From: Watersipora subatra
Taxonomy: Eukaryota; Bryozoa; Gymnolaemata; Cheilostomatida; Watersiporidae
Direction: 5' to 3'
DNA length: 64,000 bases
Assembly: GCF_963576615.1 (NCBI RefSeq)
Contig: NC_088708.1
Span: forward strand, 67,352,672-67,416,671
Position 1 is the stretch's first letter. Each line of letters opens with the position of its first letter. The notes beneath the pieces were generated by a model, which saw only the letters and a list, made by a program, of their open reading frames with translations, was not told the origin of the DNA and searched no databases. This document shows, in pieces, positions 18,701 through 50,256 of this stretch. Made by a program: the position numbers and the translations under genes.

Positions 18701-21700
18701 ATGAAAAAAATTTGTTATAAGATGATTTATCGCCATTACCTTATAACAAAGTTTGTACAGACAAGACAGTTAACTAGAATTATATTAATGGCATGTAGTG
18801 TTTAAATGTTCTTTAGGTTCTTTTCAAACACTTGACAATTTAGTTAGTTAGCTCTAAAAACAGTCTTTTATTGGTCGTCACTATATTGACATGTGGGTAA
18901 AGTCACAGTATTTCCGTTATCATACAAGGGACATCCTGAAGCACTTAAACTAGAATTGTGCTTTGAGTTTTTGGATTTTGGAAAACAATTTTCTCATGCT
19001 GAAGCAGTTCAGTAGGATGAACAGTTTAAGACAAAAAACTTTAAAATTGCTTAAGTCAATCCATAATTATAAGATAATTAAGGCCCATCATACAAGGGAC
19101 GCAGAAAATCGCTAAAAACGAAACTTCAATTTTAGGCTGAAAACTCTGTGAAGTATATGCTCACATTTTAAATTCCTTTTAGCTGATGTTTGCTATGTAT
19201 GTTTCAATGTTCAGTGTGAAAGAACTAACAGATTCCATTAATGGTTTTCATTAAACCACAGATTATTTACCACTAAGTTTGATCATACAAGGGACATCAT
19301 ACAAGGGACATTTCGGATCACTTGATTTTTCCACATATTTTATTGATAGACAGTAAAGTATTTAGCTAAAAGAAACTACAACCATTTTAATGGAATACTA
19401 CATCTAAAACTAGCATGCACTGAAACCAAAACTAAAACTATAGAGCTAAAAAATGATGAGTTCACAGGAAGTGACCAGACATGTCAAAAAACGATAAATA
19501 ATTGATATCTTAGATAAATATTGGAAATTAGATAAAGAAATGACAAATAAGATCACAAGGACATGCACCTTGCAAATTTACATGTATTTACATTTATATT
19601 GACTGTAAGCAGCTTTGACTGCCTCAGCATTCAGCAGCCGATAGGCTCGACAATTGTTGTCGCATGGAATGAGCTCTGGGTTAATATCGAGGATAAAGTT
19701 AGAGTGGGTGACTTCGATATTTCTTGGGGTGGGCCACATCCATTTCTCTCCATTTCTATTTCTACAGAACTATTGCTCGCTTAGTAGGGGATTTTGGCAA
19801 TGCCTTCTGTACCTTCCGTGATGCTTTTCCTGTAAAAAATTAGAGCACTTGGTTATTAACCTTTGATACTTGTACTTGCTACAAAGTGATCGAAGTCAAA
19901 ATTTTATAACACAATTCTTATTAATTAAAACCAATGCAATTGAACTGATTGATTTTGTTATAACTTACCAAGTGCTTGAGTAGTTGTGTATCCTGGTGTT
20001 GACTGATTACTGGTGCTTGCTTTCAGCTCAGCTTTCAGCTTGCTTCCTTCTCTCTTCGAGTAGCCCTTTGCTCCTCTGTAAGGCTGGCTGTTACTTTTGC
20101 CCATGCCTCGCGTACTTGTTGCGAATGCTTAGCCTTGTACAGCTCTGGATTTTCCAATTTCTTTTTAGCTGTATATTTCCTTTGCGCGGCACAATGAGCT
20201 GCAGGCCTGTCTTTGACAACCTTTACCATCGACATTCTGATTGAGATTGGCAGCTTGTGAAAAGTAATTGTTCTATTGCATTGACCAGCAGCAGTGTCTT
20301 GACGGGATTATTTATTAAGGTAGCCAGTCAGGCAATCACAAGCCGACAATGCTTTGAGAAAATATTTAGAGACAGCCACATTAATTGTATTGGAACTAAT
20401 TAACTCAACTAGTTATGTTTAGTTGCCTACAATGCCAACTCATGAAGCCATCACTATTCAGATCGTCGAGAAACTAAATTTCGACATAATGGGATTAAGT
20501 GCAATTAGGCTGGGAATATGTTGGGTACAGAAAAGATTATGGCCTTCCTCCACCAACAATGGTTAAGAAACCACTAACCATTTAAAATTAAGTTACGGAC
20601 TGCCGAGTATAATAACTTTCGTATGTATGTTAACTATACCTCATGAAAATTGTCTAAAATAACATGGCCATCTTTTCAACGCTACTGTTGTGTCATGAAT
20701 ATTCATGACATAATAGTAGCATTGCAAAGATGGCCATGAGGTATAGTAAGGGAATGAAAGAGTAGATGTCCCTTGTATGATAAAATTGTCCCTTGTTTGA
20801 TAATTTATTTTCTTAATTTTTCTCAAATAATTAAATTATTTAAAAAAACTAAACATGCCATCATGAACCTCTCATGGTACTATCGGAAAATCCTAACTAG
20901 AAATTTTTTCACATGATTTGTTTTCAAAAAAACTAAAAAATGGTGCCCAAATTATCATACAAGGGACACGCATGTATTTGGAACGCCTCTTAAGCAACAT
21001 TTATTAAGGATAAAACTTTGGAAACTTTTCCAGTCATAGAAACTTAATTGGATTAAGAGGTTCCTGGTGACACAATTTGCAATTTGAAATATGCATCTAG
21101 AAAAATCCAAAAAAATCAATGTCCCCTGTATGATCACATAATCGTCTCTTGCTGCTTAATTTTCTCAATTTCATGAAAATCGTTCATTATTTTTAAAAAT
21201 CATTATTAGTTATGGAAAGTTTGGACTATTAGCTTTCCAATGATGTGTAAAACTTGGTTCTATGATAAAATTTAAAAATCACATCTTTGGTTTCACATTA
21301 CTGTGATTTGACCCATGTACTTTTTCATCACGTTTATTAGTTGAATACTCAAAGTAACGAAGTGAGCTGGTCCATCCTCATGACTATTCGTGTTGTCTTG
21401 TTTAGACTCCTTATTTTTACATCGGATCACCTAGTGGATTTGAGAAGAAACTCGATGAAGCAATGGAAGACTTGCATTTTCCAGCTGATAAATATATCAA
21501 CATTATATACAGAGAGAGATGGCAGTGGTGAGTTCAGTACTATATTTTTGTATTTTACATTTTGTTTAAATAGTGGACAGCTCCTAACATACTGTTTGAC
21601 TTTTTTCTAGGAATGATCTGGCAAATTATCTTCCAACTCTTATTGTCACTGGTATCATTCTGTATGGCTTTTTCAAGGTAAGTAGAACATTCTGTATGGC

Positions 21701-24700
21701 TTTTTCAAGGTAAGTAGAACATTCTGTGAGTTATTAGCAGATGTAAGCCAGTTTGTTTTTCATGTCTACTATGTTTGATACCTGTTGTTGCTTGTGCTTT
21801 TAAATTTTAACCTAGCAAGTTAGCAAGTAATGAGTTTTAATCTAAGACCATCTAGTTTTGGTTCATTTTATGGGGTAGTCACACCTTGATAGCCTCTCTG
21901 TATATTTTTTATAAATTCGAAATTTGTCTCTTATGGTATTTGTTGTTCTATGAACTCAAAATTCTTCACTTTGTGTCTATTGAAATCCCGCCTAACATTA
22001 TTCTTTCCAAGTCTGTTATACTCTCAATGTCTGTTATACTCTCAATGTCTGTTATACTCTCAATGTCTGTTATACTCTCAGTGTCTGTTATACTCTCAAT
22101 GTCTGTGATACTCTCGGTGTCTGTTATACTCTCAGTGTCTGTGATACTCTCAATGTCTGTTATACTCTCAGTGTCTGTTATACTCTCAGTGTCTGTTATA
22201 CTCTCAATGTCTGTTATACTCTCAGTGTCTGTTATACTCTCAATGTCTGTTATACTCTCAGTGTCTGTGATACTCTCAATGTCTGTTATACTCTCAGTGT
22301 CTGTTATACTCTCAATGTCTGCTATACTCTCAGCATCTGTGATACTCTCAGTGTCTGTTATACTCTCAGTGTCTGTTATACTCTCAATGTCTGTTATACT
22401 CTCAGTGTCTGTTATACTCTCAATGTCTGTTATACTCTCAGTGTCTGTTATACTCTCAATGTCTGTGATACTCTCAGTGTCTGTTATACTCTCAGTGTCT
22501 GTTATACTCTCAATGTCTGCTATACTCTCAGCATCTGTGATACTCTCAATGTCTGTTATACTCTCAGTGTCTGTTATACTCTCAGTGTCTGTTATACTCT
22601 CAATGTCTGTTATACTCTCAGTGTCTGTTATACTCTCAATGTCTGTTATACTCTCAGTGTCTGTGATACTCTCAATGTCTGTTATACTCTCAGTGTCTGT
22701 TATACTCTCAATGTCTGCTATACTCTCAGCATCTGTGATACTCTCAATGTCTGTTATATTCTCAGCGTCTGCTATACTCTCAGCGTCTGTTAAACTCTCA
22801 GTGTATGTTACACTCTCAGCGTCTGTTAAACTCTGTCTGCTATACTCCAGACCTATTGTACGTTTTATTAGGCTTGCAGTTGTTGTGTATTTATCATATT
22901 CTATGCTTATGAGACTATCATACCTTTTCTATTTACGTATCTTTTTTATTGCCTTTCTATACTTTTCTATCTTTTCTATTGCTTTAGCAGTGTGATGTAT
23001 TATTTTACACTCACAAGTACAGATAACTAGTTATTTTCTTTCACAGAGTCGGCAGGCAGTCAAGGGTGGAGGAAGCGGACCTGGAGGAGGTTTCTTTGGA
23101 GGCGTTACCCAGTCTAAGGCTAACATAGTAAATAAGGAACTCATCACTACCAAGTTCAAGTCAGTTTTTAAGCAATACAGTACCGTACTTTTTGGACTAT
23201 AAGCCGCACCCCTATATAAGCCGCATCTGCTTTATTTTCCAAAAAACAATAATAAAACAATACATAAGCCGCAGCTTTGTATAGGCTGCATAACTCGGGG
23301 CGGTGCTTTTTAACATGGCAGCAACTTTGCTGTTTGAAACAGAACAGTGCCTAACGGCACTGTTTTGTATTAACCGACGCTTTGTAACCTAGTGTCTAAC
23401 AGAACAGTGCCATTAAGCATTGTTTTATTTTTTCTTTCACCACTAGAGGTGCACTAACCGGATATTCTGGTTAATGCGCTCTAGCGGTGAAAGAAAAAGT
23501 CACAGAATAGCTGCACCCTTATATAAGCCGCTTAGCTCAAAACATAAAAAAAAAGTAGCGGCTAATAGTCCGAAAAGTACGGTATATACATCACCTTTTA
23601 TATCCTTTTTGTATTTGCTTTGGTCACACTAGTGTGCATACAACTACACTGCAGAATTTAGTTGGTAATATCCATTTTCTACAGAGAAGTGGCTGGCTGT
23701 GAAGAAGCAAAGTTAGAGATTATGGAGTTTGTTAACTTTCTTAAAAATCCAGATCAGTACACAAATCTTGGAGCAAAGATTCCCAAAGGTGGGTGTATGA
23801 CAGGTCATATAAGTGGCATGTCTAGCTTAGTCAGTTGAACAATCTTATCTTTCTGCATATACAGTAGTTTGTTGGACCTTTCTCAATTCTACCTTGAATC
23901 AATCCTTTGTACGGTTGGAAATCACCAAACATGTCAACTAGAACTGAAATTGTACGATTTTTGTAGACATTTTTGGCTGATAGGACGGAACTGGTTATGT
24001 ATTTCTTATTAAGGTGATACTATAATTACATGTGTGTATCTCTTTGTTTTGTAAACTAGGAGCTATTGACATTGTTAGAGAAAGTATTTATCCTTGAGAT
24101 TGTTGACCTTTTCAATTAGCTTTGGTTTTAGTTTTTATTAGTAACAGAGTGACTCTCCTATATTAATAGTTATCAGCACCATTTATTGACGCCATATAAC
24201 CTACAGTGACAACTTTATGATTATTGTATTATTGCGAATAGCCGCTCATCAATTTTGCTGAGTCACTGAATTGATTGGCAGCTTTAAATGTAGCGTGATG
24301 AGGGAATAGAAAGACGAGGTCAATGGGAGTGATTACAGTATGACATTCCCATCGATCTCTGGCAATTTGTTAGATTTTTTGTCAATGTTAGAATATCATC
24401 ATTCTGGTGGAGTTGAATCAGATTATATGTTCTATTATTATAGAACAATCAAAATAAGTTGCTGAATAACCAAAATAGATTGGATTATTCATCAAAAAGT
24501 ACCGGAAAATTTGTTAAAGTAGGAAGTTTATTAATTACAAAGAAAAGGTTTTGAATTAATGCTATAAAACATGTGCCATAGTAAGCAGTATTCTCTGGTT
24601 TCTATGGTATAGATCACATCATCTGATGTATAGGCCCTTGTCTGTCTTCATGCAGCCTGCGCTGCTAGTGTGTTAAATCAGCACATGCTGTTAACTTGTA

Positions 24701-50096: not shown

Positions 50097-50256
50097 TCAG
50101 AAATAGTCGTGGTCTTCACAAGGGGGTGGAGCTTTAGTAATGCTGCGACTGTCTTCACTAGTGCTTCCGGGCTTTGTTAGAAATAGTCATGCTCTTCACT
50201 AGGGGGTGGAGCTTTAGTAACACTGCGCCTGTCTTCACTAGTGATTCCGGGCTTCA
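50097..50256 (-). repeat. 80-bp tandem duplication across the CXXC1 stop codon
   Basis: On the minus strand, copy 1 encodes [20 protein letters not shown] then EHDYF and TAA (50177). Copy 2, entirely in the 3' UTR, encodes KPGSTSEDSRSITKAPPPCE then DHDYF and TGA (50097). The copies are offset by exactly 80 bp. Confidence 0.93.

What the first reader, a model, noticed from the sequence alone, without database searches (positions are those of the whole stretch)
21657..50256. Four tandem duplications each span a gene-structure boundary
In three of the four identified genes, short tandem duplications (32, about 57, 69 and 80 bp) cross two donors, one acceptor and one stop codon. All would be hidden from the protein because splicing or termination skips the extra copy. 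This suggests frequent short tandem duplication genome-wide, with survivors seen where the second copy can be ignored, and a possible route by which introns grow and alternative splice sites arise.
Basis: partly seen in the sequence, partly recalled or inferred. Interest (0 to 1): 0.7.

Follow-up and report, generated by a model that had tools for sequence, protein, structure and literature searches.

The report
Tandem duplications straddling exon edges
In this sea-mat (bryozoan) genome short stretches of DNA are doubled so often that some doublings fall across the edge of an exon or a stop codon, where the spare copy can probably be ignored; they are no commoner there than in the neighbouring introns, but a few have grown into long rows of spare splice sites.

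Summary
The four duplications are real: 32 bp (AFG3L2-type donor), 57/58 bp (same gene, acceptor), 69 bp (TCF25 donor) and 80 bp (CXXC1-type stop codon). The genome matches Watersipora subatra, a bryozoan.

Tandem arrays with 20-120 bp units occur at 0.45 per kb outside the sampled exons. In 185 conserved-domain exons they straddle 8 of 357 called splice borders (2.2%), against 26 of 1415 shifted pseudo-borders in the adjoining introns (1.8%; Fisher p = 0.67): no enrichment. None of the arrays lies wholly inside 34,967 bp of exon, where 15.7 would be expected.

This fits survivorship: duplications fall everywhere, those inside exons are purged, those across a border persist like intronic ones. 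In 8 of 8 sampled cases the spare copy keeps its GT or AG, the unit is not a multiple of three, and using it gives a stop. Some doubled borders have expanded: a kinesin acceptor to about 15 copies; another kinesin donor (drifted homology) to about 38.

Which copy is spliced is inferred from published exon-definition work; no RNA was available. The process is of a known kind; the long rows of spare splice sites are the striking part.

The parts
21611..21677 (+). AFG3L2-type exon whose donor (GT at 21678-21679) is duplicated
   Evidence: spliced model of 11 exons reads open through; AAA, AAA_lid_3 and Peptidase_M41 in Pfam; the gene name itself is recalled
21656..21727 (+). 32-bp tandem duplication, copies 21656-21687 and 21688-21719 plus 8 bp of a third; second, spare donor at 21710
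   Evidence: 100% identical; lies at the start of a 1369-bp intron
27370..27483 (+). 57/58-bp tandem duplication across the acceptor of exon 27462-27643; spare acceptor AG ends at 27403
   Evidence: 51 of 59 columns identical; TRF row; intron 27306-27461 is only 156 bp
27462..27643 (+). AFG3L2-type exon with duplicated acceptor
40450..40583 (-). 69-bp tandem duplication across the donor of TCF25 exon 40532-40662; the copy in the intron has lost its GT
   Evidence: ungapped core 40469-40579, 83%; alignment; outer limits read by eye; intron 40369-40531 is 163 bp
40532..40662 (-). TCF25 exon with duplicated donor
   Evidence: 12-exon model with open reading frame from ATG to stop; Pfam Tcf25 E = 3.4e-115
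50094..50254 (-). 80-bp tandem duplication across the stop codon of the CXXC1-type gene (TAA at 50179-50177, TGA in the second copy)
   Evidence: 72 of 80 identical; TRF row
50177..50989 (-). last coding exon of the CXXC1-type gene
   Evidence: 5-exon partial model; Pfam CpG_bind_C E = 5.1e-85

Best explanation
In this genome short tandem duplication (units of about 20-120 bp) is frequent and falls without detected regard to gene structure. Copies that fall wholly inside conserved exons are removed by selection. Copies whose unit straddles a splice border or a stop codon persist about as often as purely intronic ones (shown for splice borders only), because one intact copy of the border remains next to the exon body: the spliceosome most likely takes the site nearest to the exon (exon definition, introns mostly long), and translation ends at the first stop, so the spare copy lies in intron or 3' UTR. 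A doubled border is a tandem repeat and can expand like other minisatellites here, lengthening the intron with a row of spare splice sites. Shown here: the density, the equality of border and intron rates, the empty exon interiors, the intact GT or AG of the spare sites in 8 of 8 sampled cases, the stop that their use would give, and the expanded arrays. Inferred: which copy is spliced, and how the duplications arise (slippage or unequal exchange).
For: Four window cases confirmed. Sample of 185 exons: 8 of 357 borders straddled, 26 of 1415 intron pseudo-borders (offsets 60, 100, 140, 180), p = 0.67. 0 arrays wholly in 34,967 bp of exon against 15.7 expected. Near edges of arrays per 40-bp bin from the border into the intron, counted from the list before corrections: 11 in -40 to 0, then 10, 6, 8, 8, 7; none listed between -100 and -40. 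Units of the 8 sampled cases are 74, 52, 43, 47, 38, 46, 58 and 31, none divisible by 3 (34 of 123 arrays overall are); the spare sites keep GT or AG, with scores close to those of the real site, in 8 of 8; use of the spare site gives a stop in 3 of 3 donors and 5 of 5 acceptors. Where the intron could be measured (7 of the 8) it is about 0.6 kb or more (and the row coordinates), and the abstract of PMC9225289 says that with large flanking introns the sites closest across the exon are preferred.
Against: No RNA data, so the skipping of the spare copy is unproved. Two window cases lie in short introns (156 and 163 bp), where the same abstract predicts that the sites closest across the intron pair, which would be the spare one; in TCF25 that spare donor is destroyed, which fits, but in AFG3L2 the spare acceptor still has its AG, which does not. 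The window rate (3 of 59) is nominally higher than the sample's, though not significantly. Border positions in the sample come from local consensus near profile matches; two were re-placed after inspection (L013 out, L020 moved). Exons were those of conserved domains, where purging should be strongest. The pseudo-borders are not independent of one another.
Confidence: 0.8

Rival explanations
1. Splice borders are hot spots for tandem duplication, or doubled splice sites are favoured by selection, so that borders carry more duplications than density predicts (the enrichment that the first reader proposed as support).
For: Window: 3 of 59 modelled borders plus one stop codon. Sample odds ratio 1.22. 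Eight array edges lie between -1 and +13 of a border after correction (list), an apparent cluster not tested formally.
Against: 8 of 357 against 26 of 1415, p = 0.67; single offsets from 20 to 180 give 3 to 11 hits of 345-357.
Confidence: 0.1
2. The spare copies are functional alternative splice sites, for instance sending part of the transcripts to decay and so tuning gene output.
For: Spare sites are intact and about equally strong in 8 of 8 sampled cases; their use gives a premature stop in 8 of 8. PMC2812944 (abstract and discussion passages) reports variable tandem repeats at human exon-intron boundaries that can give alternative splicing patterns.
Against: Intact sites are also what young neutral copies would show (the 8 are 86-100% identical). 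The most diverged donor case, TCF25, has lost the spare GT. The rate at borders equals the intronic rate.
Confidence: 0.12
3. The repeats are chance matches or assembly errors.
For: None found; the primary assembly's k-mer completeness is only 69.65% (passages of PMC12902671), which that paper gives beside 98.05% for both haplotypes together.
Against: 0 chance hits in 582,554 simulated bp; HiFi assembly with consensus quality 63, and units far shorter than a HiFi read (read length recalled).
Confidence: 0.02

Closest known systems
Variable internal tandem repeats at exon-intron boundaries (De Grassi and Ciccarelli 2009, PMC2812944)
   Same: Tandem repeats with units averaging 30 bp; those at exon-intron boundaries are described as able to alter splicing; reported as minisatellite expansion.
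   Different: There: recent human paralogues in segmental duplications, with transcript evidence, and the repeat mainly changes the gene structure. Here: conserved genes of a bryozoan, existing borders copied, apparently without change of the product, and no transcript evidence.
[quoted passage not shown] as told in passages of PMC4974935)
   Different: There a new intron is born from a duplicated exonic AGGT segment or an intron-exon structure; here an existing border is doubled, the intron only lengthens, and no new intron is seen.
Intronic minisatellites
   Same: Same unit sizes, copy numbers and homogeneity as the other arrays in this genome.
   Different: In the cases here the unit carries an exon edge with its splice site.

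Membership tests
Tandem repeats at exon-intron boundaries (PMC2812944 kind) | tandem repeat overlapping an exon-intron boundary | tested here: met
   3 window splice borders and 8 of 357 sampled borders
Tandem repeats at exon-intron boundaries (PMC2812944 kind) | copy number variable between copies or individuals | not tested
   the alternate haplotype and other individuals were not available to me
Tandem repeats at exon-intron boundaries (PMC2812944 kind) | transcripts with altered splicing | not testable with these tools
   no RNA data held
[quoted passage not shown]
   each case can be explained by one existing intron that became longer; no outgroup was available to show the ancestral intron
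Intronic minisatellite | tandem array of units of roughly 10-100 bp, many copies, high identity | tested here: met
   L011 52 bp x 15.1 at 98%; L018 32 bp x 38.7 at 91%; L030 74 bp x 4.0; L089 58 bp x at least 4.7. Two-copy cases meet it only as possible seeds
NAGNAG-type tandem splice sites (recalled family) | competing sites a few nucleotides apart | tested here: not met
   spacing is 31-74 bp in the sample and 32, 58 and 69 bp in the window

The most novel reading that the evidence does not exclude
Conserved genes of this animal carry naturally grown rows of up to 15, possibly 38, near-identical splice sites in tandem, and the spliceosome picks the single exon-nearest one each time; the rows would be natural experiments on splice-site choice, and part of the genome's minisatellites would be descended from exon edges.
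Probability: 0.25. Interest if true: 0.65.

Novelty: new member of a known kind. Interest (0 to 1): 0.38.

Why it matters
It gives an estimate of how tolerant gene structure is to short duplications: across a border they behave as in an intron, inside a conserved exon they vanish. A genome with so many of them, some amplified to many near-identical acceptors or donors in otherwise ordinary kinesin, kinase or SNF2-type genes, would let the rule 'nearest site across the exon wins' be tested on a natural series of 2 to 38 sites, with intron length as the variable. It also offers a simple route for intron lengthening.

Tried and rejected
Rejected: enrichment at borders. Rejected: that the 29-bp array in the AFG3L2 intron (12395-12867; many units have a strong donor consensus) came from the donor 107 bp upstream; its similarity to that exon's tail ranks at 0.54 among the sampled exons' tails. 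Rejected: that most intronic arrays descend from exon edges; in 62 array-border combinations within 400 bp only 2 rank at 0.02 or better and 3 at 0.05 or better, about what chance gives; the best two, L080 and L018, each rank first and were accepted on inspection. Inconclusive: microhomology at the duplication joints, since only 7 perfect two-copy cases were left, with overhangs of 0, 2, 4, 8, 12, 20 and 50 bp, several of them partial third copies. One search counted 9 spanned borders; L013 was dropped because the frame-joined donor lies 34 bp upstream, and L020's acceptor was moved 25 bp upstream (first moved wrongly, which then counted 7; corrected). Structure prediction was not used, having no bearing. 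Of the 459 rows listed went into: none, and I left out other rows by hand (many with several internal stops, weak scores or near-duplicate genes) before any repeat analysis of these loci; 185 of the 324 had 200 bp of fetched flank on both sides. L001-L008 were scanned for repeats but not used for borders. One notebook entry gives two of the 40-bp bins as 7 and 6 where a recount gives 6 and 7; the report uses the recount.

Full report
What was checked. The window is part of contig C1 of a 783,720,542-base assembly in 239 contigs. Sizes of the nine large contigs seen agree with the chromosome table of Watersipora subatra, tzWatSuba1.1 (passages of PMC12902671: 79.35, 77.13, 75.93, 67.13, 66.62, 66.31, 64.04, 61.08, 46.06 Mb), eight to two decimals and C3 within 0.01 Mb; that paper gives 783.70 Mb in 240 scaffolds. 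The identification is mine, the tool giving no name.

Genes. Splicing the window by hand gave an 11-exon piece of an m-AAA protease gene (AFG3L2-type, plus strand; AAA, AAA_lid_3, Peptidase_M41), a 12-exon TCF25 open from ATG to stop (minus strand; Pfam Tcf25 E = 3.4e-115), a 5-exon piece of a CXXC1-type gene (minus strand; CpG_bind_C E = 5.1e-85) and a 3-exon piece of an ENKD1-like gene, for which Pfam had no match, so that its name is recalled only. Further exons of the other three genes exist and were not modelled.

The four duplications are there. The 32-bp one is perfect (32 of 32) and repeats the donor AAG|GTAAGTAG. The 57/58-bp one (51 of 59 columns) repeats the acceptor TTAG|AATTGATGTACT. 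The 69-bp one has an 83% core and weaker flanks; its spare donor reads AT in place of GT. The 80-bp one (72 of 80) repeats the end of the reading frame with a stop in each copy. Using the second 32-bp donor would shift the frame (32 is not a multiple of three).

Density. A diagonal scan for units of 20-120 bp (match +1, mismatch -2, score 15 or more, low complexity removed) finds 20 arrays in the window and 69 in the first 20 fetched loci (198,000 bp), covering 7.2% and 8.6%; 8 and 31 of them have fewer than 2.7 copies. Simulated sequence of the same dinucleotide make-up gave 0 in 582,554 bp. The loci were chosen by conserved-domain exons, not by repeats.

Border test. 185 exons of kinase, myosin, kinesin, SNF2 and AAA families with 200 bp or more of flank gave 357 called borders (173 donors, 184 acceptors). 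With 5 bp required on each side and the border inside the terminal unit, 8 of 357 are straddled; the same rule at pseudo-borders 60, 100, 140 and 180 bp into the intron gives 26 of 1415 (Fisher p = 0.67). Single offsets from 20 to 180 ranged from 3 to 11 hits. In the stricter set of 88 frame-joined borders, 2 are straddled (L011, L020). No array of any kind lies wholly inside the 34,967 bp of exon; 15.7 are expected from 0.449 per kb outside the sampled exons. The 'outside' includes unsampled exons, which makes the expectation conservative.

What the straddling copies look like. Acceptors: L030 (kinesin, 74 bp x 4), L011 (kinesin, 52 bp x 15, the units carrying the acceptor plus the first 26 bases of the exon ESNDKGAR...), L020 (SNF2 type, 47 bp x 2), L080 (kinase, 38 bp x 2 with a further 38-bp array of 4.8 copies upstream), L089 (SNF2 type, 58 bp x at least 4.7, running off the fetched stretch). 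Donors: L015 (myosin, 43 bp x 2, identical), L085 (kinase, 46 bp x 2), L091 (myosin, 31 bp x 2.3). A ninth, L018 (kinesin, 32 bp x 38.7), starts at the donor, and its own exon tail fits the array best of the 173 donor tails; it is not among the 8. In all 8 the neighbouring spare site keeps GT or AG. No unit is a multiple of three. The spare site would bring a stop in all 8.

Which copy is used. The abstract of PMC9225289 states that in large flanking introns the sites closest across the exon are chosen, in short introns those closest across the intron. Seven of the 8 sampled introns could be measured and are about 0.6 to 4.8 kb (and row coordinates); but 37 of the 44 introns are over 250 bp anyway, so this is no test. 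The window has two short-intron cases: in TCF25 (163 bp) the spare donor is dead, as the rule demands; in AFG3L2 (156 bp) the spare acceptor has its AG, against the rule, so its use there cannot be excluded.

Comparison with print. Nine searches of the open-licence library listed few related papers. I saw passages of PMC4974935, the outline, one section and passages of PMC2812944, the abstract and outline of PMC9225289 and passages of PMC12902671; the rest only as listings. In those listings I saw no account of long rows of duplicated splice sites in a bryozoan, but most subscription papers are not held and the searches were narrow.

Verdict. The amplified borders are the part worth following with RNA.

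Noticed in passing
L018 6048-7284: Kinesin intron begins with a 32-bp x 38.7 array starting at the donor; units carry gag|gtgagtg-like sites and resemble the exon tail, so perhaps about 38 donor-like sites in a row.
   Followed up: partly
window 12395-12867: 29-bp array of about 16 units, many with ACAAGGTAAGTG, a strong donor consensus, about 107 bp downstream of an AFG3L2-type donor; no homology to that exon tail beyond chance.
   Followed up: yes
L080 around one kinase exon: Both sides of one exon carry arrays: a 38-bp array running into the acceptor and a 28-bp x 9 array starting at the donor.
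   Followed up: partly
array edges at -1 to +13 of borders in L010, L012, L013, L018, L019, L036, L080, L097: Eight array edges sit at or just inside the intron start or end (one search list, L013 corrected). May be old border duplications whose exon part has drifted, or a real boundary effect; not tested.
   Followed up: no
window about 23186-23583: In an AFG3L2-type intron, an element with inverted ends reading about TACCGTACTTTTTGGACTATAAGCCGC (seen by eye), like a short inverted-repeat transposon.
   Followed up: no
window about 18917-21138: The phrase ATCATACAAGGGAC and near copies recur several times, on both strands, once doubled at 19282-19311.
   Followed up: no
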